Below, piece after piece: positions 4,060 through 39,898 of a stretch of 41,504 nucleotides of DNA. The first letter of the stretch is position 1. Each line of letters opens with the position of its first letter. The position numbers and the translations under genes are program-made. Source of the DNA: a virus. The stretch is from IMG/VR virus record IMGVR_UViG_3300020053_000022, positions 1 through 41,504 of that record. The stretch is one strand, 5' to 3'. A model generated the notes under the pieces. It ran no database searches, was not told where the DNA came from, and was given only the letters and a program-made list of their open reading frames with translations.

Positions 4060-4623
4060 CTATAAAATATCGTCTGCTATATTTAAATCAACCAATTGTT
4101 TGGCTGTATAATATTGATCACTAGGGTTCTTAATAAATTTACTATTAACTTCTGGTACAGTCATACCTGTTGCTTCACGAAGTATCTGCATACACCTTTG
4201 TTCGCAGTTAGCATTTTCTTTCATCTGCGCCTTCATGTCATGCATTTTAGATTCCATTGAGTCACTGTGTTGATGATTCATAATACCTGTGTTTTTACCA
4301 ATCCAACGATATCCCTTTGTTCCACTAGCAAAAATTAAAAAACCTGCACTCATAACAGCACCAATACCTACTGTGCTAATATTATGGTAACTGTTCTTCA
4401 TAACATCAATAAGAGCAAATGCTTCATATAGATCTCCGCCTATTGTGTTAACATACAGTTCGAGTGTTCGTTTGGGTTTTTTAGTTAGGTTAGCACTGAG
4501 TATCCATTTGATAGTTTCACTAACGTTTTCGTTAGCAATCTCTCCGCTTAGATAGTGTATGTCGTTATCAAGTAACGATCTATCTACAGCATCAGAACTG
4601 TTCCAATTATCATATTTAGGCAT
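4060..4623 (-). CDS. ClpP-like serine protease
   Basis: 187 aa, close to the usual ClpP size of about 195. Landmarks in order: GGDLYEAFALIDVM (ClpP GG..., oxyanion region), GAVMSAGFLIFASG with the nucleophile Ser in MSAG, NTGIMNHQHS with the catalytic His, and SDQYYTAKQLVDLNIADDIL matching the ClpP D...FMSAEEA.GLID.V stretch with the catalytic Asp. The full triad therefore appears present. It could be a phage ClpP that docks with host ClpX/ClpA, or a prohead-type ClpP-fold protease; position among early genes and fit to ClpP favour the former. A late octamer lies 15 bp upstream and no Shine-Dalgarno is visible. Confidence 0.85.
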   Translation of the reverse strand: MPKYDNWNSSDAVDRSLLDNDIHYLSGEIANENVSETIKWILSANLTKKPKRTLELYVNTIGGDLYEAFALIDVMKNSYHNISTVGIGAVMSAGFLIFASGTKGYRWIGKNTGIMNHQHSDSMESKMHDMKAQMKENANCEQRCMQILREATGMTVPEVNSKFIKNPSDQYYTAKQLVDLNIADDIL

Positions 4624-7418: not shown

Positions 7419-8108
7419 TAACTTAGGAAACAATGCATCTGCACAAAACTCGTCAACATCAGATTCAGACAGCCCTAATGACTTCATTACACGTGGAGTA
7501 TGTGGATTTTGTTGCTGGTTATGACAGTAGTAATTCTGTGCTCCAGCAGTAAGGTCAGATGATGCATTACCTGTATACTCAGGAACACTTTGAAACCATA
7601 CTTTTAAATTTTCAATAGCTAAATCGCAAATTGCAGTTGCTTCTTCTTCACTGCTAACATTCCCTGCGGCAATCATACCCGGGCTAAAGATGTTAGTTGC
7701 CCATTCAGGTAGTTCTCTTTTCTTACTTGGAATAAATTCTGCTACAGCATCTTGATACCATTCACATAAAGGGTGGTCTTCTCCTCCACTACTTGCACTA
7801 AAGTCGTGAAAGGCACCTGTCATTTTGTTCTTACCTGCAATAACATCAAACCCGTAAATAGGTGCATCGTTAGTTAGTGTTGGAAAACAGCATACATGCA
7901 TCATCCATAGTCCTTTAGACTCACGTACATCAACTACATCAATATGAGCTCTGCGTACATGCGGATTTGCCCAAACTTTATTAAGCCATCCATTTTCTGG
8001 TTGATTAAATTTATTAAGAGTTTTTTCTTCTTTCTCAATTGCAAACTCATCAAAGATTTCAATAATGCGATCTTGTGTGTTGATTAGTTTATTCCATATT
8101 ACGCTCAT
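7413..8108 (-). CDS. Ferredoxin-dependent bilin reductase (PebS/PcyX-like)
   Basis: 231 aa, matching the roughly 230-250 aa of the HY2/PcyA/PebS family that reduces biliverdin using ferredoxin. The core WMMHVCCFPTLTNDAPIYGF, then DVIAGKNKMTGAFHDFS, corresponds to the family's active-site sheet, with the catalytic Asp in GFDVIAG. Phage members include PebS (cyanophage) and PcyX (oceanic phage metagenomes, paired with heme oxygenase). Given the non-cyanobacterial context I favour a PcyX-like enzyme, but the product (phycoerythrobilin or other) cannot be read from sequence alone. The ATG overlaps the halogenase stop by 4 bp (ATGA), so it is translated from the clpS-HO-halogenase operon. Confidence 0.85.
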   Translation of the reverse strand: MSVIWNKLINTQDRIIEIFDEFAIEKEEKTLNKFNQPENGWLNKVWANPHVRRAHIDVVDVRESKGLWMMHVCCFPTLTNDAPIYGFDVIAGKNKMTGAFHDFSASSGGEDHPLCEWYQDAVAEFIPSKKRELPEWATNIFSPGMIAAGNVSSEEEATAICDLAIENLKVWFQSVPEYTGNASSDLTAGAQNYYCHNQQQNPHTPRVMKSLGLSESDVDEFCADALFPKLG

Positions 8109-9598
8109 CTGTTACTCCACTCTCTATTTGTTATTCCTGGCAATGACTCTTTTAATTCAACCTCATGCATAGCTTTAATTATATCAATTGCGTTTTGTTT
8201 TTCAATTTTTGGTGTCATTGGATTAATGCCTGTAGCATGTAGCCATAACTTCCAGTTTGTTTCTGCAAATATTTCCGTGTTACGTGGAAAGAACTGCGAT
8301 TGGTCTAGTGTTGATGTATATGTTTTTGCATACCCTGTGGCTAAATCTTGTAGCTGGGGTGTTTCTTTAAAGTTTTCGTAAACATGTTTCCAAAACTTAC
8401 CTTGTCTTAGATTATTAAAGTAATGCAATGCTACAAAGTTCATGCTATCTTCGTATACTGTTTCAATATCTTTATTGTAATTATCTACATCATCTTGTGT
8501 GTAGTGTCCTTTTTGTAAACATCTAAGGCCAGTTGCTCCAATGATTAATAATGCAAGACCTGTACTTTCTAGTGGCTCAATAAATCCACTAGCTAATCCT
8601 ACACTAAAACAATTACCTCTCCAGTTCTTTCTATTATACTTAGGTTCAAACGGTACATGATTAAACTTGCCTGTTCGTAGTCTATGTTCTCCCCAATGTT
8701 GTACAAAATGATCTTCAGCTTCTTGTTTAGTTGTTAGGTCACTGTTATAACACAGTCCACTTCCAATCCTGTCTTTAACAGGAGTTTTCCATATCCAACC
8801 TAGGTCAGTTGCTTGTGCAGTAACATAAGGTACTTGAGGTTCATCATCTGTTTCATAATCAATTTGACTTGCAACAGCGGCATTAGTAAAAAGCATATGA
8901 CTTCTATCAACCCAATCTGCACCAGGTAATGCATTTGACAATAATTTTTTAAATCCAGTACAGTCAACAAAGAAGTCAGCAGTAAGCTCTTGACCATCTT
9001 CTAATATAACTTTTTCAACTTGGCATTTATTAATTACAGGTTGACTAATGTGTTTCTTAATGTGTCTTAGTTTAGGATACTTTTTGTTTAGATACTCTGA
9101 TAAAAAGTTTGCAAGTTTAATAGCATCTAAATGATATCCTACATGAGCAGGACCGCCTTTAACACTTGTATTTTCTGGAATAATATTATTCTTAACGCAG
9201 GAGTTGTACCATGAGATATATGTTTCCATATCGGTTTGAGTAGCACCAGCATCAAGGGCTAAATTTACGATATCACCCATGTGTCCATCTTTACTAGTAC
9301 CTACCGGAAAATAAAACGGTTGCCATATATTTGTGTCATCACCTTTCCAGTTAGGAAAGTATGTTCCGCATTTAATAGTTGCATCTGATGCTTTAGTCCA
9401 TAACTCTAACGGAATGCCACAATCTTTTAAGTAATGGTCAAAGCCTAGTATAGTTGCTTCACCTACACCTACTGTTGGAATGTTAGGACTTTCTACAAGG
9501 GTAACAGATACGTTGGGTAAATTATATAAGGCATAAGCGGCTGTCATCCAACCTGCTGTTCCGCCACCAACAATACAAATACTTGATACGTTAGTCAT
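8105..9598 (-). CDS. Flavin-dependent tryptophan halogenase-like enzyme
   Basis: 497 aa, usual size for the family. An N-terminal FAD-binding motif IVGGGTAGWMTA is followed by VGVGEAT; SDATIKCGTYFPNW supplies the catalytic Lys (PrnA K79 equivalent). LGWIWKTP matches the halogenase GWxWxIP signature with Thr replacing Ile, and GFIEPLESTGLAL carries the Glu near the chloride site. Enzymes of this type use FADH2, O2 and halide to make an enzyme-bound haloamine. A cyanophage homolog (VirX1) is known to iodinate varied small substrates. The native substrate here is unknown; its place between heme oxygenase and bilin reductase, with overlaps at both ends, suggests a link to tetrapyrroles. Confidence 0.9.
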   Translation of the reverse strand: MTNVSSICIVGGGTAGWMTAAYALYNLPNVSVTLVESPNIPTVGVGEATILGFDHYLKDCGIPLELWTKASDATIKCGTYFPNWKGDDTNIWQPFYFPVGTSKDGHMGDIVNLALDAGATQTDMETYISWYNSCVKNNIIPENTSVKGGPAHVGYHLDAIKLANFLSEYLNKKYPKLRHIKKHISQPVINKCQVEKVILEDGQELTADFFVDCTGFKKLLSNALPGADWVDRSHMLFTNAAVASQIDYETDDEPQVPYVTAQATDLGWIWKTPVKDRIGSGLCYNSDLTTKQEAEDHFVQHWGEHRLRTGKFNHVPFEPKYNRKNWRGNCFSVGLASGFIEPLESTGLALLIIGATGLRCLQKGHYTQDDVDNYNKDIETVYEDSMNFVALHYFNNLRQGKFWKHVYENFKETPQLQDLATGYAKTYTSTLDQSQFFPRNTEIFAETNWKLWLHATGINPMTPKIEKQNAIDIIKAMHEVELKESLPGITNREWSNR

Positions 9599-10139
9599 TG
9601 CGTTCGTGTTCCATCATTTCCTTAAACGCCTTAGTTGCAAAATCAAAACATATCTTAGCTTCATCTGCTAAGCCGTCGTGTATCTTTGCTCTAATTTTTG
9701 TTTTAAGGTCATTGACTTCGCCATCGAACTCATACATAGTACCTTTGCCAGGCACTTTCTTTTTAATCATCTGTCCACCACTTAGATCCCCCATATGTCT
9801 AACATACAAGTGAGCCATGATCTTTTCTTTGTCGTCTTTAATAGACATGATATGATCAGTATATTCTTTAGTTACATTAAGTAGTGGCGGTGGGTTTTCT
9901 TTATCCTCCCACAGTTCTTCATAATCTTCAAAGATACGGGGAGCTCTACGAACTTCGGGAATATCGTCAAACAGTCCGTGTGCCATAGCAATTACTTCTA
10001 GTAAATTATAACACGGATGTTGGTTGAATAAGAATGTAGCATAAGTTTCAGGAGCAATGTTTCCTCCCATTAAAACTTTTACAAATTCTTGTCGTTCTGC
10101 ATTTTTGTGATGTTCCCAGGTAAGATCTTTTAAGCTCAT
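9591..10139 (-). CDS. Heme oxygenase
   Basis: 182 aa, short HemO/HO-1 type. The proximal-heme His lies in WEHHKNAE (residue 11, pattern HxxAE), and the distal helix signature is HLYVRHMGDLSGGQ. The enzyme opens heme to biliverdin, CO and iron, providing the substrate for the bilin reductase two genes downstream. The ATG overlaps the clpS stop by 4 bp and the stop overlaps the halogenase start by 8 bp, so all four genes are probably coupled. Confidence 0.93.
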   Translation of the reverse strand: MSLKDLTWEHHKNAERQEFVKVLMGGNIAPETYATFLFNQHPCYNLLEVIAMAHGLFDDIPEVRRAPRIFEDYEELWEDKENPPPLLNVTKEYTDHIMSIKDDKEKIMAHLYVRHMGDLSGGQMIKKKVPGKGTMYEFDGEVNDLKTKIRAKIHDGLADEAKICFDFATKAFKEMMEHERND

Positions 10140-10444
10140 TCTTTTTCCACTTTGATTTGTAATGGAAAACCATGACTTCTACTCAAAGTGGTTGCTTCAA
10201 CTGCCTTTTGTTCTGCTATTTCATAAGTATATATTCCGGCTACAGATGATCCACTTTCGTGTATATCCATAGTTATATCTCTAGCAGTCTCTGGCGAATG
10301 TCTAAAAACACTAGTAAGTATCTCAATCACAAAATCCATTGGAGTTGCATTATCATTGAGAAAGATTACTTTATACATATCGGGTTCAGTAACCTTAATC
10401 TTAATTTTTTCGTCTATTTCTACGTCCATATTATTACTTATCAT
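10136..10444 (-). CDS. clpS: ClpS-like adaptor
   Basis: 102 aa. YKVIFLNDNATPMDFVIEIL is the ClpS core (Y-x-V-x-x-x-N-D-x-x-T-x-M-x-F-V), followed by AGIYTYEIAEQKA (ClpS G-x-Y-x-x-E-x-A). ClpS binds N-degron substrates and hands them to ClpAP; the N-terminal extension here is about 20 residues. It is the first gene of the heme oxygenase/halogenase/bilin reductase operon and follows a strong terminator. A ribosome binding site (GAGGAGA) precedes the ATG. With the ClpP-like gene and tmRNA it suggests that the phage redirects host proteolysis. Confidence 0.9.
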   Translation of the reverse strand: MISNNMDVEIDEKIKIKVTEPDMYKVIFLNDNATPMDFVIEILTSVFRHSPETARDITMDIHESGSSVAGIYTYEIAEQKAVEATTLSRSHGFPLQIKVEKE

Positions 10445-11065: not shown

Positions 11066-11623
11066 TTATGAGATATTGACGAAAAAGAATTGATTTAGGC
11101 TAAATCTGCCTGGTCCTTGTACAGGATTGACAGCATGTAGCTCAAAACTAGGAAATATCATAATGCTATTGTTTACTATGTTAGGTGTGTAGCGATGCTC
11201 TGGAAACACTAGTTCTCCGCCTTTGTAGGGCTTTGGTTCCTTATAAAACAAGCTGACTGCTGACATAACTGCACTATCTCTATGTCCATGGTATAATCCA
11301 TTTTCGTACATATTCAGCTGAGTAACATCAAAGTTACTTTGCCAAATAAACTGTGAAAATATATTTTCTTTTAATTCTTCTTCTAAATTGAATATTTTTC
11401 TATTGTGTGTAAGGATTTTACTTTTGCCACGATTGGCAACAAAGTGTTTATCCAAATGCACACTAGTCATATTCATTGCTCTAGGATCACCTTCATCTCT
11501 AGTGTCCTTGCAATATTGTTGCAACTCGTCTATTTCTTGCCATACTTCAGACAGTTCACTTGGTGAAAAGTAATCGTATATAATTGTATGGTAGAAAGGT
11601 TCTTTAAAATGTTTAACTTGCAT
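11066..11623 (-). CDS. 2OG-Fe(II) dioxygenase, prolyl 4-hydroxylase-like
   Basis: 185 aa. Iron ligands HxD in GLYHGHRDSAVMSAVSLFY (His, then Asp two residues on), distal His in FPSFELHAVNPV, and 2OG-binding Arg in GPGRFSLNQF: the P4H-type double-stranded beta-helix order. GGELVFPEH is also typical of the family. It uses 2-oxoglutarate and O2; the target (protein side chain or other) is unknown. Its ATG lies 11 bp inside the end of guaC, so the two are coupled. Confidence 0.85.
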   Translation of the reverse strand: MQVKHFKEPFYHTIIYDYFSPSELSEVWQEIDELQQYCKDTRDEGDPRAMNMTSVHLDKHFVANRGKSKILTHNRKIFNLEEELKENIFSQFIWQSNFDVTQLNMYENGLYHGHRDSAVMSAVSLFYKEPKPYKGGELVFPEHRYTPNIVNNSIMIFPSFELHAVNPVQGPGRFSLNQFFFVNIS

Positions 11624-12659
11624 TAAACTGATTGAACACTTGATTTACTTGTTGTGTACATCTTACAAATGTAGTACACTTGGGCATATCTTTAATACGT
11701 TTAGCACCAATATATGTACAAGTAGATCTTAGTCCTCCAAGAATTTCAACAACAGTTGCTTCAACAGGTCCTTTGTGAGGAAGTTCAACAACTTTACCTT
11801 CTGCTCCACGGTATCCATCTTTACGTGTACCATGTGTTGCCATTGCGGCATCTGAACTCATGCCATAAAACTGTATTTTGCCGTTTACTACTTCGCCTTC
11901 TGATTCATCGTGTCCGGCAAGCATACCGCCTAGCATTGTAAAGTGAGCACCTGCTCCAAAGGCTTTTGATACATCTCCTGGATACACGCACCCGCCATCA
12001 GCAATAATGTGTCCACCAATACCGTTGGCCGCATCAGCACATTCAATAATGCCTGATAGTTGCGGTACACCAACACCTGTCATTAGTCGTGTAGTACATA
12101 CTGATCCTGGACCAATACCACACTTAACAATGTCAGCACCTTTGATGATAAGTTCTTCTGTCATCTCTGCTGAAATAACATTACCAGCAATAATAGTTTT
12201 GTCTGGATATGCATCTCTAACTCTAGAAATAAAGTCTGCATAGTTTTCGTGATAGGCATTTGCAACATCAACAGTAATAAACTTAATGTCTGGATACATT
12301 GCTAGTACTGCCTTCATAGTAGCAAAGTCCGGAGCGTCTGGATCCCAAATAACTCCTGTACCTGTACAAACACTAAGGTATTTCATTTTAACACCTTTAG
12401 CATTTTTAGTCCAGTCATCAACTGTATAGTGTTTTCGCATTACAGTGATCATCTTATGTTCTTGTAATACTTTAGCCATTTCAAATGTACCAACACCGTC
12501 CATGTTAGATGCCATAATAGGTACACCTGTCCATTCGTTACCGTAATGAAATTTGAATGTACGAGTTAGATCAACATCACGTCTGCTTTCTAATTTTGAT
12601 CTTTTAGGTTTAAACAATACGTCTTTATAATCTAACTTAATATCTTGTTCAATTCTCAC
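11613..12659 (-). CDS. guaC: GMP reductase
   Basis: 348 aa, almost the same length as E. coli GuaC and colinear with it: MRIEQDIKLDYKDVLFKPKR at the start, GIGPGSVCTTR with the catalytic Cys, GVGVPQLSGIIECADAA, the IIADGGC phosphate loop, and FYGMSS plus YRAAEGK-like (YRGAEGK) segments. No CBS domains, which separates it from IMP dehydrogenase. It converts GMP to IMP with NADPH, so it can shift guanine nucleotides to the adenine pool, useful for an AT-rich genome. It starts with GTG, overlapping the upstream oxygenase stop (GTGA). Confidence 0.93.
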   Translation of the reverse strand: MRIEQDIKLDYKDVLFKPKRSKLESRRDVDLTRTFKFHYGNEWTGVPIMASNMDGVGTFEMAKVLQEHKMITVMRKHYTVDDWTKNAKGVKMKYLSVCTGTGVIWDPDAPDFATMKAVLAMYPDIKFITVDVANAYHENYADFISRVRDAYPDKTIIAGNVISAEMTEELIIKGADIVKCGIGPGSVCTTRLMTGVGVPQLSGIIECADAANGIGGHIIADGGCVYPGDVSKAFGAGAHFTMLGGMLAGHDESEGEVVNGKIQFYGMSSDAAMATHGTRKDGYRGAEGKVVELPHKGPVEATVVEILGGLRSTCTYIGAKRIKDMPKCTTFVRCTQQVNQVFNQFNAS

Positions 12660-13258
12660 TTTTTCACTCCATAATTAAATGATACTGCAATCCGTTGCAA
12701 ATCACTTTGATTTGATTTAACTTGATGTTTTATCCAACTAGGAAAAATTACAATCATTCCGTTTTTTGGAGGATATGTTGCCATTGTGCTTGTAATTGTA
12801 TTATACTGATCAAGGTTATCAGGAATATAATACTGTGCATCATCGCCTCTAAAAAACTGTAAGTCTCCCATGTTCTCTGCTGGAATGTCAATATAAAATA
12901 CACCACTCAACATAGCATCTTGATGATTGTGTAGTGTATGATATGCTCCTGGACCATTAATATTAATCCAAAAGTTTTGGAATTCTAACTCAGGCAATCC
13001 CATAGTTTTAGCACAATAGCCTACTTGTGCATCTAGTTCTTTTACGAACGTATTAAGAGTAAACACATGGTTAGGATCAACCAAATTTATATTCTCAATA
13101 CTGCGACTATGCCAACCGTTCATATTACTATTGCCACCAAGTTGGGGTTCTTTTGCCTGCCATGCAAGAGCAATTTGTTTTAAGGCGTTTCTATCAATTG
13201 ATTCTACATATCCTGCAAATACAATAGATGGAAACCAAAGGTCAGCTTTTAAATTCAT
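12656..13258 (-). CDS. 2OG-Fe(II) oxygenase (TIGR02466-like)
   Basis: 200 aa. Pattern of the 2OG-FeII_Oxy_5/TIGR02466 family: FWININGPGAYHTLHNHQDA, LSGVFYIDIP, then GMIVIFPSWIKHQV and RIAVSFNYG. His ligands appear in HTLHNHQDA and SWIKHQV, and the 2OG Arg in LQRIAVSF. Substrate unknown. It sits directly after bS21 copy 2 and overlaps guaC. Related genes lie at 30028-31908. Confidence 0.8.
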   Translation of the reverse strand: MNLKADLWFPSIVFAGYVESIDRNALKQIALAWQAKEPQLGGNSNMNGWHSRSIENINLVDPNHVFTLNTFVKELDAQVGYCAKTMGLPELEFQNFWININGPGAYHTLHNHQDAMLSGVFYIDIPAENMGDLQFFRGDDAQYYIPDNLDQYNTITSTMATYPPKNGMIVIFPSWIKHQVKSNQSDLQRIAVSFNYGVKK

Positions 13259-13956: not shown

Positions 13957-15681
13957 CTACTTCTGTGAAGTCTGGTCTGAGTCTTTTGTTTTTTTGCGGA
14001 TCTGTTTGTTTTCTACTTTGGTTATGTACGAAGTTTTTTTTTGATCTTCTAACTCTGCACTATAAAAGATTCTATTTCTTGTATTTGGAATTTCTGGATT
14101 TTTTTCTGCTTCTTCGTTTGCCTTTTCAACCCAATCATTCCAGTTAGTAAGATCGTCTGTTTCGACCATTTCCTTGTTAATATCTGCTCGACTAGGTTTT
14201 TTATCAAAGTCGAGTTCTAATTGTTCTTCTTCAGTTCCAGCCACAATTGGATCGTCTTCATCTTTTATTTCCTCTGATTTAAATTCTTCTGGATCAATAT
14301 CTGGGAATAACAAAAATTGATCGCTATGTTTACTCTTAATTGGGTCTTCTGCTAATTCTTCAAAGCCTGTTGGAACATTTTTAGCAATGGCTTGAGCTCT
14401 TGCGTGTTCGTATTCTCTACGTTCTTCTTCTGCTAATTCTTCTGGACTAACATCTTCAAACTGAGGATCGTCTTGTGGATCGTCCTCGTCTGACTTTGGG
14501 CGGCCGCCTCCACCTACATTACCACTATGTACCCAATGGAAAGTATATTGACTAGCAATTAATAGTAATACTGCTAGTGGATCAAACACAAAGATAATAA
14601 TGATAATAACCCAACGTACTGCTTCTTCAAGCATAGATTTGTCTGCGGCTTCACCATAAACAAACTCAGCAATATATTTGATAGGTCCTACTTCTGCTTC
14701 TAATTTACGATACTCGCCTTCTAGTGCATACTTCTCATCTGTAAGTATGTCAATTTCTGCATTAGCATTTTTAATTCTTGTATTTTGTGCATCTACTTGT
14801 GCATCGATATTATCAGACTTATCAGTATCACCTAATTGATCACGTAGTCTATTAATAAGTTCATTTGATTGTACAATTTGTGTTTCTACAGTTTTACGTA
14901 GTCTTTTGATTTCTTGTGCGGCCGCTTGTGCTTGTGGATTGTTAGATGCTTCTTCAATTTTAGTAATTAACTCGATACGTTTTGCTTGTTTTTCGTCTTG
15001 CCAATCCCCAATTTTATCAGCAGTCTTTTTACCAAAGATACCATCAGCACTAGCACCAATCATTTGTTGTGCTTTTTTTGTTTCGCCACTGTCAATATAG
15101 CCTTGTAGTGTAGCAAGGTCCCCGTCAATCTTAGCAAGTTCTTTTTTGTAAAGGTCTGCTTGTTTATCAATAATAGCCTGTTGTTCAGCAATGGCAGGTT
15201 CAATTCTTTCGTATGCTTTGTCTATACGGCTTTGTTCAGAATCAATCTGTGCTTGTATATTAGCATCACCACCAGTGGTACTTGTTTCAAGTTTTTTGAT
15301 CTTTTCTTCAGCACGATCGATAATATCTTGTTGTCTTTGTATTTCGTTTGTTAGACGTTCTACTTGAGCAACACTTTCTTGACCTGCACTTGTTTGCTCA
15401 ATATGTGCTTTGGATAGAAAGCCAAAGATACCCATGCTTGTAATAAACATAAGAACTAATACAGCAATACTTAGATAACTTTTCAGCCACCATGCGGCTT
15501 GGCTCCAATAACGGTGTAACCATACTGCGGTAACAAGTTTACCAACTTCTAATACACCACCCATAATAATAATGGGAACAGCGGCCGCGGCAAAAATAGC
15601 CACCAACCCAGCGACACTATAGTATATTGCTACTGCTGATATAGATATAGCAGATAAAAAAGTTAGTATTCCTATTAACAT
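13957..15681 (-). CDS. Large membrane protein with long coiled coil
   Basis: 574 aa from the ATG at 15681 (AAAGGAAACCAT upstream; a GTG at 15702 abuts the late promoter and is less likely). Two or three N-terminal transmembrane helices (MLIGILTFLSAISISAVAIY, LVAIFAAAAVPIIIMGGVL, LSIAVLVLMFITSMGIFGFL) are followed by about 250 residues of coiled coil, another hydrophobic helix near residue 360 (WVIIIIIFVFDPLAVLLLIA), and a long acidic cytoplasm-like tail. Inside the coiled coil, SADGIFGKKTADKIGDWQ resembles the repeat of PG_binding_1 domains. Such proteins occur in marine T4-like phages; function unknown, perhaps envelope remodelling or superinfection control. A late promoter lies 21 bp upstream. 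Confidence 0.75.
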   Translation of the reverse strand: MLIGILTFLSAISISAVAIYYSVAGLVAIFAAAAVPIIIMGGVLEVGKLVTAVWLHRYWSQAAWWLKSYLSIAVLVLMFITSMGIFGFLSKAHIEQTSAGQESVAQVERLTNEIQRQQDIIDRAEEKIKKLETSTTGGDANIQAQIDSEQSRIDKAYERIEPAIAEQQAIIDKQADLYKKELAKIDGDLATLQGYIDSGETKKAQQMIGASADGIFGKKTADKIGDWQDEKQAKRIELITKIEEASNNPQAQAAAQEIKRLRKTVETQIVQSNELINRLRDQLGDTDKSDNIDAQVDAQNTRIKNANAEIDILTDEKYALEGEYRKLEAEVGPIKYIAEFVYGEAADKSMLEEAVRWVIIIIIFVFDPLAVLLLIASQYTFHWVHSGNVGGGGRPKSDEDDPQDDPQFEDVSPEELAEEERREYEHARAQAIAKNVPTGFEELAEDPIKSKHSDQFLLFPDIDPEEFKSEEIKDEDDPIVAGTEEEQLELDFDKKPSRADINKEMVETDDLTNWNDWVEKANEEAEKNPEIPNTRNRIFYSAELEDQKKTSYITKVENKQIRKKTKDSDQTSQK

Positions 15682-15702
15682 ATGGTTTCCTTTTGTATAC
15701 AC

Positions 15703-29352: not shown

Positions 29353-30031
29353 ACTTCATAGTGTCATAGTACTGGTATACTCGGTCCCACCACTTAGATT
29401 CCCACGCTTTAAATTCGTCTGGCCATAGATCAAACTGCTGATACGTTAAGTCGCGACAGCATACAAATACATGCCCTTCTTTAATGTCTGTGCCATATAT
29501 TTCGTTATGTGCTAAGGCATATGCTGTTAACTGCAAATAGTAATCTTCAATCCATTCTTTCTTCTTAGGCTTGTTAGATTGTTTAAAGTCCATAATCGCA
29601 GGTTGACCTTTGTATGTTCCTACAAGATCAGTTGTTCCTGCATAGATTTGAGGGTGATAAAGCATTACTTCTGTACCCCATATAGCATCTACATCAACCA
29701 TAGCATTATCGCGAATTTGTTCACCCATCTTGTTTGCTTGTTGACTGTAAGGATTACTACCCGGCTTTGGCCATTCACCATCTAGTATATAATCCTCTAA
29801 AAACTTGTGCATACGTGTTCCAACACCAGCGGCTTCTGTTACAATCTCTTGTGCTTTCTGTTCTCCAACACGCTTACGCCATGCGTTTAAATGCGTCATA
29901 TCCTTCGTTTTACTAAGGATTGTTGTAACACTTGCTACATGGTTACCATCTGGACAAGCATATAATCTTTTGCCATCTACGCTTTCACGTTTTAGTTCTT
30001 TATAATCATACTGTTGTGTTATTAAACTCAT
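29351..30031 (-). CDS. PD-(D/E)XK (RecB/Cas4-like) nuclease
   Basis: 226 aa. GVGTRMHKFLEDYI is the usual early helix; IYAGTTDLVGTYKGQPAIMDF followed by KQSNK gives the D...D-x-K catalytic core, and YYLQLTAYALAH is the QxxxY motif of RecB-type nucleases. Likely a DNA exonuclease for recombination or host-DNA breakdown. Its stop overlaps the late promoter of the tail-spike gene and its ATG overlaps the upstream oxygenase-like gene by 4 bp. Confidence 0.85.
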   Translation of the reverse strand: MSLITQQYDYKELKRESVDGKRLYACPDGNHVASVTTILSKTKDMTHLNAWRKRVGEQKAQEIVTEAAGVGTRMHKFLEDYILDGEWPKPGSNPYSQQANKMGEQIRDNAMVDVDAIWGTEVMLYHPQIYAGTTDLVGTYKGQPAIMDFKQSNKPKKKEWIEDYYLQLTAYALAHNEIYGTDIKEGHVFVCCRDLTYQQFDLWPDEFKAWESKWWDRVYQYYDTMK

Positions 30032-30570
30032 TTAATTTCTTCCTCTGGCTCTAGCCATTCTGTTACAAAATTGATAACCAACGCACTCCTTGTCTTGTGA
30101 TAAGGATATGTTCCATGATTAACGTTGCCTGTCATTAGTACTGTTTTACCTGGTGTAGGCACTACTTCATTAATACTAAGGGTAAGATCTCTTTCTACAA
30201 TAATTGTATATAACGAACCTGAATTATCGTTTGGTAGATCTAATTCTAAATCTTGTGCATACATTACTAAACTAATTAGATTAGGTTTGCCTGTATGATT
30301 GTGTACACTTTGGTATTCGTGTGGTTTGTAGTTGTGTAACCAGCTTTCGTCTACTGTTACGTTCTTTACAGGAATACTATGTTCAATCATTTTATCTTTG
30401 ACCCAAGTTTCCATTACTTTAAAACATTTAGGATCAATAGTGCTTTGTATTCGTCTAGGGTAATCTTTAACTTCGATAACATGTTTATTTGCATGTTGGT
30501 GTAAAGACTTCCAGTCGTCATAGTTTGTTTCAACTACAACTTGATTGTACCCTGTGTAGACTTTATCCAT
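30028..30570 (-). CDS. 2OG oxygenase-like protein, tandem copy C
   Basis: 180 aa from the ATG at 30570 (AGGAG upstream). WLHNYKPHEYQSVHNHTGK, then GSLYTIIVE, GKTVLMTGNVNHGTYPYH and LVINFVTEW: a jelly-roll with His residues where TIGR02466-like oxygenases place them, but HxH rather than HxD. It is paralogous to the next gene upstream (YQAIHNHG, GRVWHGVYP), which it overlaps by 8 bp. It may be an active dioxygenase or a degenerate one. Confidence 0.65.
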   Translation of the reverse strand: MDKVYTGYNQVVVETNYDDWKSLHQHANKHVIEVKDYPRRIQSTIDPKCFKVMETWVKDKMIEHSIPVKNVTVDESWLHNYKPHEYQSVHNHTGKPNLISLVMYAQDLELDLPNDNSGSLYTIIVERDLTLSINEVVPTPGKTVLMTGNVNHGTYPYHKTRSALVINFVTEWLEPEEEIK

Positions 30571-31324
30571 TAGGATCAAACTCCTCGTCTGGTGCAAAGT
30601 ATTCAAAGTCAAAGTCAACTACCCAAGTACGTCTTGGTGCTTTACAAGGATATACTCCGTGCCAAACTCTGCCGTCCATAATAACTGTTCTACCCGGATA
30701 TGGTGCAAATTGATTGTACTCTTGTGTTCCATCTGGGTTCGGCATCAGTGTATACAACATACCATTATCTGGTGACATTGTATTGTGTTCGCTGAGATTC
30801 TCAGGTGTTTCGTCCATAGCCATTACCATACTAATACATGCACTACCGTGATTGTGTATTGCTTGATATCCGCCATCATCGTAATCAACACACCAAGTCT
30901 TACTTACTTTAATAGTCTTAACAGGAATGCCGTTGCGCCTAACAACAGTCATTACCCAATCCATAAGTTTCTCCCAATCGATGTTGTCAAACTTTTCTTT
31001 GTCTATTGGAGGGAAGTTTGATTTTACAGTTGGTTCAAATCTTGTTTCTTTAAGAAGTTTACTACTTGGAAATCCTTGTTGCTCAGGTGTGTCAGGATTC
31101 ATCTTGTCTGACCTTACAACCTTGCCACCCCATGCAGGCAAGTTAGGTGGAGTAATATCATATTGATAACCATTGAATGTTGTTTTAACATTGCTTTGGT
31201 CTTCACCTTTAAATTTATCATTCTCAAACAATTCTAAAAACTGTTCATGGAATGGACATTTGATATCAACTATCCATTGATTACTAGCACTCATACATGT
31301 GCCTAAGTCTATTCGATTGGTCAT
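30563..31324 (-). CDS. 2OG oxygenase-like protein, tandem copy B
   Basis: 253 aa. The C-terminal 120 residues match copy C: WCVDYDDGGYQAIHNHGSAC, NGMLYTLMPN, GRTVIMDGRVWHGVYPC and TWVVDFDFEYF. The N-terminal ~110 residues are different and include PPNLPAWGGKVVRSDKMNP, which may be a binding extension. Probable iron ligands are the HNH pair and the WHG His. ATGA overlap with copy A. Confidence 0.65.
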   Translation of the reverse strand: MTNRIDLGTCMSASNQWIVDIKCPFHEQFLELFENDKFKGEDQSNVKTTFNGYQYDITPPNLPAWGGKVVRSDKMNPDTPEQQGFPSSKLLKETRFEPTVKSNFPPIDKEKFDNIDWEKLMDWVMTVVRRNGIPVKTIKVSKTWCVDYDDGGYQAIHNHGSACISMVMAMDETPENLSEHNTMSPDNGMLYTLMPNPDGTQEYNQFAPYPGRTVIMDGRVWHGVYPCKAPRRTWVVDFDFEYFAPDEEFDPNG

Positions 31325-31908
31325 GTGCGTCCCCTGTCTATAGCATTACAGTTTATAGTGAAGGTAATTCTATCTTTGTCAATCTGACTTGCTTGTGTCT
31401 TATGTGTTAACCAACCTGGAAACAATAATACATCATTAGTTTCTATACTTACTTCTCTCCAGTAATCGTGTATAGTGGCTTTTGGCTTTCGAGATGTAGC
31501 TATCCATCTTTCTCGCAATAGCTGTTCAAATTCTAAGTTACCACTTCCAATAGGTGCTTGTACATATGCTGATACAACAAGTGTTGTTGCACCATGCTCG
31601 TGTGGTAATGTGTGTGCATGTTTATTGTGCAGGTTTGACCAACTGCTTGTGTATATAACATCAGTATAATTACAATCCCATTCGTGTAGTGCTATTTCAA
31701 TCTTTGGCATTAACCATGTCATGAAGTCTTTGTTACAATCCCATTCGTGTGGAGGGTTTAGATGTCCGGCTGTACTCATGCCGCCATCTGCCTCTGTATC
31801 ATTTAGTTGTAGTTCTCTAGATTGATAATCTAAAAACTCTGCTACATTAAAACCAGGAGCATAGTTATATTTCCAAACTAAATTAGGGGTTATCTTTACT
31901 TCATTCAC
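31321..31908 (-). CDS. 2OG-Fe(II) oxygenase-like protein, tandem copy A
   Basis: 195 aa. SSWSNLHNKHAHTLPHEHGA, VVSAYVQAPIGSGNLEFE, then VLLFPGWLTHKTQ and RITFTINCNAI follow the TIGR02466/2OG-FeII_Oxy_5 layout. It heads the three-gene oxygenase series and has a sigma70 promoter just upstream (31931-31959). Substrate unknown. Confidence 0.7.
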   Translation of the reverse strand: MNEVKITPNLVWKYNYAPGFNVAEFLDYQSRELQLNDTEADGGMSTAGHLNPPHEWDCNKDFMTWLMPKIEIALHEWDCNYTDVIYTSSWSNLHNKHAHTLPHEHGATTLVVSAYVQAPIGSGNLEFEQLLRERWIATSRKPKATIHDYWREVSIETNDVLLFPGWLTHKTQASQIDKDRITFTINCNAIDRGRT

Positions 31909-31964: not shown

Positions 31965-32303
31965 TTATGCTACTGCTTTTGATGTTGCACGTTGAGCCAT
32001 TTTATCTACTTCACCATCAGTTTCTTTACCTTGTGGTGCATCACTAGGTGCTTCTTTCTTTGTATAAAGAGTAATACCTTTTGAATCAAAGTTTTTAATT
32101 AATGGTTGTAGTTCTGGACTTGCGTCATAAATTGCTTTGAACCCATCGTAATCAAACTGTGGTTTCTTTAAGTTCTTCATGATAGTATTCATTGCGTCGA
32201 ATGAAAGATAGGCAGGCTGATTTTGTGTATCAGCACTACCTATTACATTTCTAAATACGTTTATTAAGGAAGACTTTGTGTCTGAATTGGAAGCCTCAAT
32301 TAC
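31965..32303 (-). CDS. -1 frameshift extension of the 313-aa protein (or separate ORF)
   Basis: 112-codon open frame lying -1 relative to the 313-aa gene. It opens with a stop just upstream of that gene's slippery A-runs and continues to 31965 without interruption. The first ATG is about 37 codons in (32192) and has no Shine-Dalgarno, while the codons before it read like real protein (SLINVFRNVIGSAD, QNQPAYLSFDAM). The natural reading is a C-terminal extension made by -1 frameshifting at A AAA AAG, giving a protein of about 425 aa. Otherwise a homopolymer assembly error has split one gene. Confidence 0.65.
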   Translation of the reverse strand, partial: VIEASNSDTKSSLINVFRNVIGSADTQNQPAYLSFDAMNTIMKNLKKPQFDYDGFKAIYDASPELQPLIKNFDSKGITLYTKKEAPSDAPQGKETDGEVDKMAQRATSKAVA

Positions 32304-33241
32304 TTTTTTTGAGATACTACCTTTTTTTTTGAATCAGTTAATAACTGAGCTAATCTACGTGAGCGTAGTACGCTTTCTCGTTTGCCTCTGTCTGCAGGCT
32401 CTTCGCCTCCAGTTGCAGGTTCACTTGCGCCAAATTCATCATCTACTGGTGCTTCAGCATCGGCTTCCTGGTCCACTGTTGGTTCCATAGCTGGTTCCTC
32501 TGCAGGAGCCTCTACATCTGTTCCCATAGTTTCTGGAGCGCCTTCGCCTGTTACAATGGCTACGCCACCGGATAATGCTTCTCTAGTAGTTTCGAATGTT
32601 GTGTATAGTTGTTCAAGTGCTGGTTTTACAGTTCCAATAAATTGTTCTGATGCCTCTGAACCCATTTCATCTCTAATCTTGTCGCCTAGTTCTAGCATTG
32701 ATTCTGTTTGCATTTCTGCTGTGTCTTCCATCCAACCTGTAACTCTATCAACCATGTCCTTAGCGGCCATAACTAATGTTGCGGCTTCTTCAGCGCCTTC
32801 GTTAGTTTTCTTTTTGCCTGCAATAGCTTTTTGTAAGCCTGCTGGAAGTTTCTTTTGTTTTGCTGATAATCCTTTTGAATCTGAATCTTTTGAATCGCCT
32901 TTTTCTTTAGCGGCTTTTTTCATAGGCTCTTTTTTGTCGCCATCTTTGTCAATGTCAAGGAAGTCTGGTTTTGCTTCGTCTACTTGCTTTTCTCTTTCAA
33001 GCATCTCTTGATTGATAACGTCTAGGAACATTTTAGCTTTCTGATATGTATCACTTGAATGTACGCTTTCAAACTTTTCACTTGTTTCGACTTGACTTAA
33101 TTGTGTACGTAATTTATTACGTGCATCTTCTAGTTGCTCTACAGTAAATTTATCAAGAGCAATTCTTGTACCAAAAGTTTTAGCTAGGCTTTCGTTTAAA
33201 GCATTCGCTGTTAGTGGTTTTTTTAAATCGTTAAGTTTCAT
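32300..33241 (-). CDS. Probable virion/prohead protein with frameshift site
   Basis: 313 aa in the zero frame. N-terminal MKLNDLKKPLTANALNESLA looks like a head-targeting leader. A helical region follows, then a Lys/Asp-rich low-complexity segment (LDIDKDGDKKEPMKK, KGLSAKQKKLPAGLQKAI), a helical domain, and an acidic Pro/Ala/Glu tail (~240-290). Similar charged-tail proteins occur in the structural modules of marine T4-like phages. Its last codons contain two in-frame A AAA AAG heptamers, the second directly before the TAA. A late promoter (33266-33273) and AAGGA ribosome binding site are present. Confidence 0.7.
   Translation of the reverse strand: MKLNDLKKPLTANALNESLAKTFGTRIALDKFTVEQLEDARNKLRTQLSQVETSEKFESVHSSDTYQKAKMFLDVINQEMLEREKQVDEAKPDFLDIDKDGDKKEPMKKAAKEKGDSKDSDSKGLSAKQKKLPAGLQKAIAGKKKTNEGAEEAATLVMAAKDMVDRVTGWMEDTAEMQTESMLELGDKIRDEMGSEASEQFIGTVKPALEQLYTTFETTREALSGGVAIVTGEGAPETMGTDVEAPAEEPAMEPTVDQEADAEAPVDDEFGASEPATGGEEPADRGKRESVLRSRRLAQLLTDSKKKVVSQKK
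32303..32327 (-). promoter_or_regulatory. Tandem slippery heptamers (A AAA AAG)
   Basis: Two A_AAA_AAG heptamers in the zero frame of the 313-aa gene, at 32327-32321 and 32309-32303 (read on the minus strand). The second is followed at once by TAA. A -1 slip at either joins the 112-codon downstream frame. A AAA AAG is the classic efficient bacterial slippery sequence (dnaX). Confidence 0.7.
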
Positions 33242-33895: not shown

Positions 33896-34342
33896 TTAAC
33901 TTTTACCCATTTGTGCTATTGCATCAGCTTTTTGTTTCACTACATCGTCTAAGTCTTTTTTATTATAGATAAACGATTGTGGTTCACCCGCTTGTGGTTT
34001 TGGATTTTTTAGGATGACTTGATCGCCTTGAACGTCATCAATATCAAATTCTTGTTCTCTGCCGCCTGGCCCTTGTGTTGGCATTGCCAACTTAGCACCT
34101 TTTTTAAGTATGCTTTTTGTTATATTAGATTGTGCCTTGCCAATTGATTTCATGGCCGCTTTACCTGCACCTTTGGCTAGATTAGCGCCTGTTTTCATTC
34201 CAGCAGTAGCAACTTTCATACCGGCCTTTGCGGCCGCTGTACCCATTGAAGCACCGACTCTACCAACTGCCGCCGCAATAGCCGGAACTATTTCAACAAC
34301 TTGTTGTTCTTGTTTTGCTTTTGTAAACTCGTCTGCTCTCAT
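33896..34342 (-). CDS. Ala/Gly-rich amphipathic protein
   Basis: 148 aa. Residues ~20-90 are Ala/Gly/Lys-rich (AIAAAVGRVGASMGTAAAKA, AGMKTGANLAKGAGKAAMK), resembling membrane-active or internal head proteins. The last 50 residues are a small beta domain (EQEFDIDDVQGDQVILKNPK). Function unknown; the neighbourhood suggests a virion or injected protein. The ATG shares its first base with the stop of the basic paralog upstream. Confidence 0.55.
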   Translation of the reverse strand: MRADEFTKAKQEQQVVEIVPAIAAAVGRVGASMGTAAAKAGMKVATAGMKTGANLAKGAGKAAMKSIGKAQSNITKSILKKGAKLAMPTQGPGGREQEFDIDDVQGDQVILKNPKPQAGEPQSFIYNKKDLDDVVKQKADAIAQMGKS

Positions 34343-34671
34343 TATTTAGATCTCTTTTTAAAACTCTTACTTCTACTTGGTTTTTTATATCTTGTTTGTG
34401 ACTGTGGCTTATTAGCAGTTGCTAGTCTTTTACTTAAACCGCTCGCACGTTTTGTACGTCCAGATCTGACTTGCATCACACTACCTTTTTTAGCCTTAGT
34501 TCTCTTTATATTTATAGCACTAGACACTCGTTTAGTTGCATTACATGTAGCTGGTTTAGCAACAATACGCCCTTTACGTGATCCACTAGTGCATCTGTAC
34601 TTACGAACTAGCTTGCCTTTGGTCTTGCCCCATATGCCAATAACACCTTCTTTGATTTCGGCTATTTTCAT
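34342..34671 (-). CDS. Small basic protein, zinc-ribbon-like, paralog 2
   Basis: 109 aa, extremely Lys/Arg-rich. LVRKYRCTSGSRKGRIVAK then PATCNA, followed by INIKRTKAKKGSVMQVRSGR and a basic tail. The two Cys are spaced as in paralog 1; no further Cys, so a complete zinc site would need dimerisation or His. The MKIAEIKEG start fits a T4-like capsid-targeting leader (IKE|G). It looks like a DNA-condensing internal head protein. It overlaps paralog 1 by one base. Confidence 0.65.
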   Translation of the reverse strand: MKIAEIKEGVIGIWGKTKGKLVRKYRCTSGSRKGRIVAKPATCNATKRVSSAINIKRTKAKKGSVMQVRSGRTKRASGLSKRLATANKPQSQTRYKKPSRSKSFKKRSK

Positions 34672-34952
34672 TACCTACGTCCTGCTTTGTTAAGAGCTTG
34701 TACTCTACGTGAAACTGGATTGATACGTTTAGTTCTACGTGCCTTACGCATCATCTTGCCCCCGATTCTAGCTCTAGTCTTTTTCATACGTATTCTAGCT
34801 TTAACATCAGGTGCCGCGAAACATTGTGCCATTTTTTTAACAATACGCCCTTTACGAGGACCTTGAGTGCAACGGTACTTACGGACTACTTTCTTTCCAG
34901 ATCGTGCCCAAATTTGTTTTTCGTCTATTGATATAACTTCACGTATCAGCAT
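34671..34952 (-). CDS. Small basic protein, zinc-ribbon-like, paralog 1
   Basis: 93 aa, very basic. VVRKYRCTQGPRKGRIVKK, AQCFAA, IRMKKTRARIGGKMMRKA and RRTKRINP align with paralog 2. The leader MLIREVISIDEK has I-D-E. The late octamer GATAAATA is exactly 5 bp before the ATG, so the predicted transcript starts at or next to the start codon. Function unknown; DNA binding is likely from composition. Confidence 0.65.
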   Translation of the reverse strand: MLIREVISIDEKQIWARSGKKVVRKYRCTQGPRKGRIVKKMAQCFAAPDVKARIRMKKTRARIGGKMMRKARRTKRINPVSRRVQALNKAGRR

Positions 34953-39746: not shown

Positions 39747-39820
39747 GCGGGTGTCGTATAATGGTAATACCTCAGATTTCCAATCTGATGCTAGGAGTTC
39801 GATTCTCCTCACCCGCTCCA
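39747..39820 (+). tRNA. tRNA-Gly (UCC)
   Basis: Full cloverleaf: acceptor GCGGGTG/CACCCGC, anticodon stem TCAGA/TCTGA around TTTCCAA (anticodon TCC), T arm AGGAG-TTCGATT-CTCCT, encoded CCA. Reads GGA, a codon common in AT-rich genes. Confidence 0.96.
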
Positions 39821-39822
39821 AA

Positions 39823-39898
39823 GCCGGCATAGCTCAGTTGGTAGAGCAACTGATTTGTAATCAGTAGGTCCCGAGTTCGAATCTTGGTGCCGGCACCA
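39823..39898 (+). tRNA. tRNA-Thr (UGU)
   Basis: Acceptor GCCGGCA/TGCCGGC, anticodon stem ACTGA/TCAGT around TTTGTAA (anticodon TGT), T arm CCGAG-TTCGAAT-CTTGG with two G-U or A-U pairs, encoded CCA. Reads ACA. Confidence 0.96.

What the first reader, a model, noticed from the sequence alone, without database searches (positions are those of the whole stretch)
31965..32330. Probable programmed -1 frameshift at tandem A AAA AAG heptamers in a head-region gene
Seen: two zero-frame A_AAA_AAG sites, the second touching the TAA stop; the -1 frame is then open for 112 codons, protein-like before its first ATG, and no Shine-Dalgarno is present for internal initiation. Known: A AAA AAG is the dnaX-type slippery site. 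Inference: two products, 313 aa and ~425 aa, in a fixed ratio, as in tail-assembly chaperones but in a different gene type.
Basis: partly seen in the sequence, partly recalled or inferred. Interest (0 to 1): 0.8.

Follow-up and report, generated by a model that had tools for sequence, protein, structure and literature searches.

The report
Slippery A-run fuses phage head cargo
In a large group of marine viruses of bacteria, a run of nine A's near the end of a virion-protein gene is conserved so that some copies slip by one base and continue into a second small protein; relatives that lost the A-run carry that second protein as a separate gene with its own start.

Summary
Of 114 distinct homologs, 108 keep an in-frame A AAA AA(G/A/C) site just before the zero-frame stop, usually TC-A9-G. 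In every one the -1 frame then runs on into a conserved domain of about 100 aa under purifying selection. The six without a slippery site carry the domain as a separate ORF with its own ATG; they arose at least twice on the tree. Cultivated jumbo phages (121Q, PBECO4, CBB, Vibrio 2.275.O) also have two adjacent genes, and in CBB both products were found in virions by mass spectrometry.

The extension begins with [V/I/L]-x-E in 52 of 53 clusters, the form cut by T4-type prohead proteases, so I read the fusion as a cleavable way to carry a small virion protein into the prohead.

The second heptamer is specific to close relatives. The slipping machine is not settled: run length (at least 9 A in 67 of 70 clusters) is better kept than A AAA AAG (57 of 70), and the window's clade has a covarying hairpin abutting the run. 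Both point to RNA-polymerase slippage, while other lineages look ribosomal.

The parts
32300..33241 (-). Zero-frame ORF, 313 aa: acidic, helical virion protein (N part); distant homolog of CBB_298 and 121Q gp27
32334..32348 (-). 5' hairpin TCAGTT-ATT-AACTGA just before the A-run (weak here: 6 bp, 3 nt gap; 8 bp and 1-2 nt gap in most clade members)
32322..32330 (-). A9 run, main slippery site (TCA AAA AAA AAG, codons 32332..32321)
32321..32327 (-). Heptamer A AAA AAG in zero-frame register (site 1)
32303..32309 (-). Second A AAA AAG (site 2), present only in near relatives
32300..32302 (-). Zero-frame stop TAA
31965..32321 (-). -1 frame read after slippage at site 1 (118 aa, stop 31965-31967); with the N part 425 aa
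32295..32303 (-). V-I-E codons: [VIL]-x-E motif, proposed prohead-protease site at the start of the extension
   Evidence: protease specificity from PMC9026906
31968..32303 (-). C domain, 112 aa past the stop; predicted helix-strand-helix-helix-hairpin fold, winged-helix-like (weak)

Best explanation
The gene makes two proteins by programmed slippage on a nine-A run: a 313-aa virion protein, and a minority 425-aa fusion carrying a small C-terminal domain read in the -1 frame. The fusion most likely works like a Gag-Pol carrier: the N part enters the prohead and takes a limited number of C domains with it, and a T4-type prohead protease then cuts after the [V/I/L]-x-E at the junction and frees the C domain inside the head. 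Relatives that keep the domain as its own gene give it an N-terminus ending in the same kind of site. Shown by comparison: conserved slippery site; conserved coding -1 frame; mutual exclusion with a separate start; conserved junction motif; both homologs in the virion of a cultivated relative. Inferred: that slippage occurs, its rate, the cleavage, and head delivery. Slipping machine in the window's clade: RNA polymerase on A9 helped by the 5' hairpin about 0.55, ribosome on A AAA AAG about 0.40. A programmed -1 frame change of either kind: about 0.97. Cleavable head-cargo role: about 0.6.
For: 108 of 114 distinct homologs keep an in-frame slippery heptamer with an open -1 frame; the 6 without it are exactly those with a separate ATG-started ORF. 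Split states need at least two switches inside the family on a supported tree, with L164 nested among slippery relatives. The extension is under purifying selection, and 13 of 106 extensions have no ATG/GTG/TTG in their first half. [LIVFM]-x-E falls within 7 residues of the slip in 51 of 53 clusters, against 2.8% of control windows; where the hydrophobic residue is not forced by the overlapping stop, 13 of 15 are still I/L/F/V, against 11% background. One 335-kb contig carries this gene, a gp21-type S77 protease and gp23. N and C homologs are adjacent genes in 121Q, PBECO4, CBB and Vibrio 2.275.O, next to the same exonuclease. CBB_298 and CBB_299 were found in virions by MS (PMC5259590). For polymerase slippage: at least 9 A in 67 of 70 clusters against A AAA AAG in 57 of 70; a strong hairpin 1-2 nt before A9 in 17 of 22 window-clade clusters against 2.6% of control positions and 0 of 48 other clusters; hairpin covariation 0.362 against 0.198 shuffled, 0 of 500 shuffles as high.
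Against: There is no expression or peptide data for any slippery member, and no cleavage was observed. The window's own hairpin is weaker than its relatives'. Part of the V preference at the junction is forced by the overlapping stop. Sequence support for the C domain being homologous to CBB_299 and 121Q gp28 is weak (hhalign probability 8.8%; CBB_299 and Vibrio 026 E about 0.01 above 3000 decoys, 121Q gp28 not separable), so that link leans on gene order. The frame direction is -1 in all 108, a pattern the GeneTack authors took as favouring ribosomal shifting, although single-A insertion would give the same direction. No S77 protease was found in the window's own 41-kb fragment.
Confidence: 0.66

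Rival explanations
1. Ribosomal -1 frameshifting on A AAA AAG or A AAA AAA is the main mechanism throughout, as in dnaX and IS elements; the A9 run is an enlarged slip site.
For: A_AAA_AAG is the most shift-prone heptamer in E. coli and the dnaX site (PMC5009743). Four loci keep only the minimal A6-G heptamer, too short for known polymerase slippage on plain A-runs. Direction is -1 in 108 of 108 (criterion). Strong 3' stem-loops of differing sequence follow the site in L139, L161, L153 and L171. The zero-frame stop directly follows the heptamer in 38 of 70 clusters.
Against: Run length of at least 9 is kept in 67 of 70 clusters while A AAA AAG is lost in 13. No conserved Shine-Dalgarno-like stimulator upstream (mean percentile 0.44). 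No special 3' structure in the window's clade (0 of 22). The 5' hairpin lies where the ribosome would keep it unfolded (inference).
Confidence: 0.4
2. Internal initiation or stop-start coupling translates the -1 ORF as a separate small protein; no fusion is made.
For: Six homologs and the cultivated jumbo phages do express it as a separate gene. In five clusters the stop is TGA and GTG overlaps it, e.g. L133 and L136.
Against: 13 of 106 extensions have no start codon in their first half. Protein conservation begins at the slip site. The A9 is kept only where no separate start exists.
Confidence: 0.04
3. Phase variation by DNA replication slippage, or an assembly or homopolymer sequencing error, so that the true gene is one continuous ORF.
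For: Homopolymers are error-prone and can be contingency loci (general knowledge).
Against: None of 238 loci from many independent metagenomes and MAGs carries an in-frame fused allele. A10 cases keep the domain in -1, and A6 and A8 cases keep it in -1 too.
Confidence: 0.02
4. The frame shift is real but the fusion is a permanent structural protein (like the T7 10B or A2 head extensions); the V-x-E at the junction is not cut.
For: Frameshift extensions of head proteins that stay in the virion are known in T7, T3 and A2 (PMC5009743). No cleavage data here.
Against: Split homologs and CBB show the domain works as a separate polypeptide. [VIL]-x-E is conserved next to a variable-length linker, as expected for a short linear motif.
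Confidence: 0.3

Closest known systems
E. coli dnaX -1 frameshift (A AAA AAG)
   Same: Same heptamer and register; longer and shorter products sharing an N part
   Different: Here the longer product needs the shift; no conserved SD stimulator; A9 rather than A6; structural viral gene
Transcriptional slippage on A9/T9 (Thermus dnaX, Shigella spa13, Citrobacter tssM) and stem-loop-stimulated slippage in a Roseiflexus IS element
   Same: A run of about 9; in the window's clade a hairpin directly 5' of the run; spa13 also adds a 112-aa extension
   Different: Not shown by RNA here; Roseiflexus uses T5C5 and a deletion; phage virion gene
Head-protein frameshifts (T7/T3 gene 10, Lactobacillus phage A2, Listeria A118/A500/PSA)
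   Same: Minority C-terminal extension of a virion protein made by frame change
   Different: Those extensions remain attached; here a protease-like motif sits at the junction and the domain exists as a separate gene in relatives
Retroviral Gag-Pol
   Same: Structural N part carries a minority frameshift-encoded part into the particle, later cut by the viral protease
   Different: Analogy only; no homology
T4 capsid-targeting sequence and gp21 (L/I-x-E) processing
   Same: Split C domains begin MKVFELYE|A, MRFRDLTE|E, MRYKDLCE|G; targeting peptide and cut site close together
   Different: Cleavage untested; V often at P3; in slippery members the carrier is a whole 307-aa protein
Rak2-like/Asteriusvirus jumbo phage genes CBB_298/CBB_299, 121Q 27/28
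   Same: Homologous N part, same order, same exonuclease neighbour; both virion proteins in CBB
   Different: Two separate genes, no slippery site

Membership tests
Programmed -1 ribosomal frameshifting (dnaX type) | X XXY YYZ heptamer in the zero frame with an open -1 frame downstream | tested here: met
   108/114; in the window at 32321-32327
Programmed -1 ribosomal frameshifting (dnaX type) | Upstream Shine-Dalgarno-like stimulator | tested here: not met
   mean percentile 0.44, lowest decile in 5/70; window at 0.98
Programmed -1 ribosomal frameshifting (dnaX type) | 3' stem-loop or pseudoknot stimulator | tested here: inconclusive
   0/22 in the window's clade, 11/48 in the lowest decile elsewhere; pseudoknots not tested
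Programmed -1 ribosomal frameshifting (dnaX type) | Frame change during translation, mRNA unchanged | not testable with these tools
   needs mRNA sequencing and a reporter
Programmed transcriptional slippage | Homopolymer run of about 9 A or T | tested here: met
   at least 9 A in 67/70 clusters, exactly 9 in the window
Programmed transcriptional slippage | Nascent-RNA hairpin directly 5' of the run (stem-loop-stimulated kind) | tested here: met
   met for the window's clade (17/22); weak in the window itself; absent in other clades
Programmed transcriptional slippage | mRNAs with extra A | not testable with these tools
   no transcript data
T4-type prohead protease substrate | L/I-x-E site at the junction or behind a targeting peptide | tested here: met
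   (V/I/L-x-E; mostly I/L when not forced by the stop overlap)
T4-type prohead protease substrate | gp21/S77 protease encoded by the same phage | tested here: inconclusive
   present on the L095 contig; not found in the window fragment or other partial records
T4-type prohead protease substrate | Actual cleavage in the virion | not testable with these tools
   needs mass spectrometry
phrog_14154 virion structural protein / CBB_298 family (N part) | Sequence homology | tested here: met
   49/57 members; hhalign 93%, E 2.4e-7
CBB_299 / 121Q gp28 family (C domain) | Sequence homology | tested here: inconclusive
   weak scores; same gene order, length and C-terminal motif
Tail assembly chaperone (lambda G/GT) | Gene between the major tail protein and the tape measure | tested here: not met
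   neighbours are DUF6267, 2OG-Fe oxygenases, exonuclease, RNR; no tape measure adjacent
T4 gp22 scaffold | Gene between gp21 and gp23 | tested here: not met
   about 208 kb away on contig G019:C57

The most novel reading that the evidence does not exclude
One phage gene family switches between three ways of making the same cargo product: hairpin-stimulated RNA-polymerase slippage on A9 (window's clade), ribosomal -1 frameshifting with a 3' stem-loop or a minimal heptamer (other clades), and a separate gene with its own capsid-targeting start. In the fused forms the cargo is delivered into the prohead on a carrier and released by the prohead protease, a Gag-Pol-like strategy in a DNA phage.
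Probability: 0.35. Interest if true: 0.88.

Novelty: new variant of a known kind. Interest (0 to 1): 0.72.

Why it matters
It adds a conserved programmed frame change, apparently unreported, in a virion gene of a large group of uncultured marine T4-like phages, with built-in natural controls. If right, gene finders split or truncate this virion protein in hundreds of genomes, and phages use a carrier-and-cut trick akin to Gag-Pol to set how much of an internal protein enters the head. The family also lets one ask how evolution swaps polymerase slippage, ribosomal slippage and separate genes for the same product.

Tried and rejected
tblastn of the N part and of the extension against 50,697 phage records found nothing. 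The P-TIM68 DNA hit is only a shared linker, KPDFLDxDKDGDKKEPMKKA, and was set aside. An upstream SD stimulator is not enriched. 3' structure in the window's clade: none. A search with the C-domain alignment could not be run. Pfam gave no family for either part. Comparison with solved structures by sequence: nothing. Structure search of the C domain: winged-helix proteins at Z up to 6.2, below the level that shows kinship; best viral match an uncharacterised 117-aa protein. A PF07068 search in 18 partial virus records found nothing and proves nothing, since no control rang. phAPEC6 gp182c has the mass of the 121Q gp28 homolog (12.33 kDa), but its record is not held, so the identity is not proven. 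Phase variation and sequencing error were considered and rejected.

Full report
What is there. On the minus strand the 313-aa ORF 33241..32300 ends TCA AAA AAA AAG GTA GTA TCT CAA AAA AAG TAA. After the A9 run (32330..32322) the -1 frame is open to 31965. A slip at either heptamer gives 425 aa.

Relatives. P0001 has more than 500 relatives in IMG/VR; the best 80 of each of three searches, plus two MAG contigs, gave 238 loci and 114 distinct genes. In 108 the zero frame contains A AAA AA(G/A/C) shortly before its stop and the -1 frame stays open. Where the contig reaches far enough it encodes a conserved domain of about 97-132 aa. The A-run is 9 in 94 genes, 10 in 7, 8 in 3 and 6 in 4. TCA AAA AAA AAG occurs in 53 of 70 clusters where codon usage predicts 3.8. 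Elsewhere in 260 kb of coding sequence of these phages there is a single A9.

The -1 frame is real coding sequence. Substitutions in 35 independent pairs fall 482/276/1147 on codon positions 1/2/3, with rough dN/dS between 0.05 and 0.29. In 13 of 106 extensions no ATG, GTG or TTG occurs in the first half, so internal initiation cannot make the domain there.

Natural control. Six homologs (L104, L128, L140, L148, L160, L164) have no slippery site. Each has the domain as a separate ORF starting MKVFELYEA, MKVSEILKEQ, MRVSDIILEQ or similar, 4-16 nt past the stop and often after a TAAGGA-like stretch. They form a clade of five plus L164, which nests among slippery relatives with good support, so at least two switches occurred. 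A distant homolog, L092, has the domain about 1.9 kb further on, behind a halogenase-like gene.

Cultivated relatives. The N part matches phrog_14154, virion structural protein. It aligns over 251 columns with proteins of Escherichia phages 121Q and PBECO4 and Vibrio phage 2.275.O (93%, E 2.4e-7). In all of them the next gene encodes a 111-118 aa protein starting MRFRDLTEEA or MRYKDLCEGS, followed by the same kind of exonuclease. In Pectobacterium phage CBB the pair is CBB_298/CBB_299. PMC5259590 Table 4 lists both among virion proteins found by mass spectrometry, with 10 and 2 unique peptides. The C-domain homology is weak by sequence and rests mainly on gene order, length and the C-terminal motif.

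The junction motif. Within seven residues of the slip, 51 of 53 clusters have [LIVFM]-x-E, against 2.8% of control windows. The motif is followed by a linker of 5-13 residues and then the domain. Part of the V preference is forced because GTA overlaps AAG-TAA; where it is not forced, 13 of 15 are still I, L, F or V. T4 gp21 cuts after L/I-x-E, and the first ten residues of T4 internal protein IPIII target it to the prohead (PMC9026906). The family's genome type has such a protease: contig G019:C57 (335 kb) carries this gene, an S77 protease (E 8e-26) and gp23 (E 4e-97). The gene is about 208 kb from that cluster, so it is not gp22. Several neighbours begin with similar N-termini, for example MRFNELINE/AE.

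Which machine slips. A_AAA_AAG is the most shift-prone heptamer in E. coli, and bacterial RNA polymerase slips efficiently on nine A's (PMC5009743). Here at least 9 A is kept in 67 of 70 clusters while A AAA AAG is kept in 57; for instance TCG AAA AAA AAA GAC loses the heptamer but keeps nine A's. In the window's clade 17 of 22 clusters have a hairpin of 5-8 bp ending 1-2 nt before the run, against 2.6% of control positions and 0 of 48 other clusters. Its arms covary: score 0.362 against 0.198 shuffled, no shuffle as high, slid versions at most 0.107. A subgroup with an insertion rebuilt it from different sequence: AAGTAGC-GAG-GCTACTT, AAGCG-GAGA-CGCTT, AAGTAC-GGAGA-GTACTT. A hairpin directly 5' of the slip motif stimulates polymerase slippage in a Roseiflexus IS element. 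Against this, four loci keep only A6-G; L139, L161, L153 and L171 have strong 3' stems of unrelated sequence; and direction is always -1 (criterion), though single-A insertion also gives -1. I lean to polymerase slippage in the window's clade (0.55) and to ribosomal shifting in some others.

Structure. The C domain is predicted with good confidence in its core (residues 10-80, pLDDT about 89) as helix-strand-three helices-hairpin, resembling winged helices only weakly. The N part is helical with a disordered acidic stretch (mean pLDDT 67, pTM 0.30).

Conclusion. A programmed -1 frame change conserved across a large group of marine T4-like phages is close to certain by comparison. The carrier-and-cut role is the best reading, at about 0.6. 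No report of it was found in the library searched; the library is incomplete, so this is not proof of novelty.

Noticed in passing
window 14034-14042 (-): A second A9 run, inside the 581-aa ORF 13957-15702 about 80 nt before its stop; the only other A9 in 260 kb of coding sequence scanned.
   Followed up: partly
L133, L136, L138, L144 (zero-frame stop TGA): The stop overlaps a GTG in the -1 frame (AAG TGA gives GTG), so stop-start coupling could add to slippage; L133 and L136 are sisters of split L164 and look like intermediates.
   Followed up: partly
window 32969-32900 (-) and L093:6001-6071: Linker KPDFLDxDKDGDKKEPMKKA, with a DxDxDG motif, shared with otherwise unrelated P-TIM68 protein gp155.
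   Followed up: partly
window 34342-34952 (-): Two small basic paralogs (RKYRCTSGSRKGRIV...) with N-termini like the capsid-targeting type; possible internal head proteins.
   Followed up: no
window 10136-10444 (-): ORF with MYKVIFLNDNATPMDFVIEIL, reminiscent of ClpS (from memory, untested); a ClpP/head-protease-like protein lies at 4060-4623.
   Followed up: no
L092:1044-2630: A tryptophan-halogenase-like gene lies between the N and C genes of the distant homolog; the window has its own halogenase at 8105-9598.
   Followed up: no
window 39747-39898 (+): tRNA-Gly(UCC) and tRNA-Thr(UGU) genes on the strand opposite to the virion genes.
   Followed up: no
window 11066-13258, 30028-31908 (-): Several 2OG-Fe(II) oxygenase genes (phrog_81) in one fragment, one directly downstream of the frameshift gene.
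   Followed up: no
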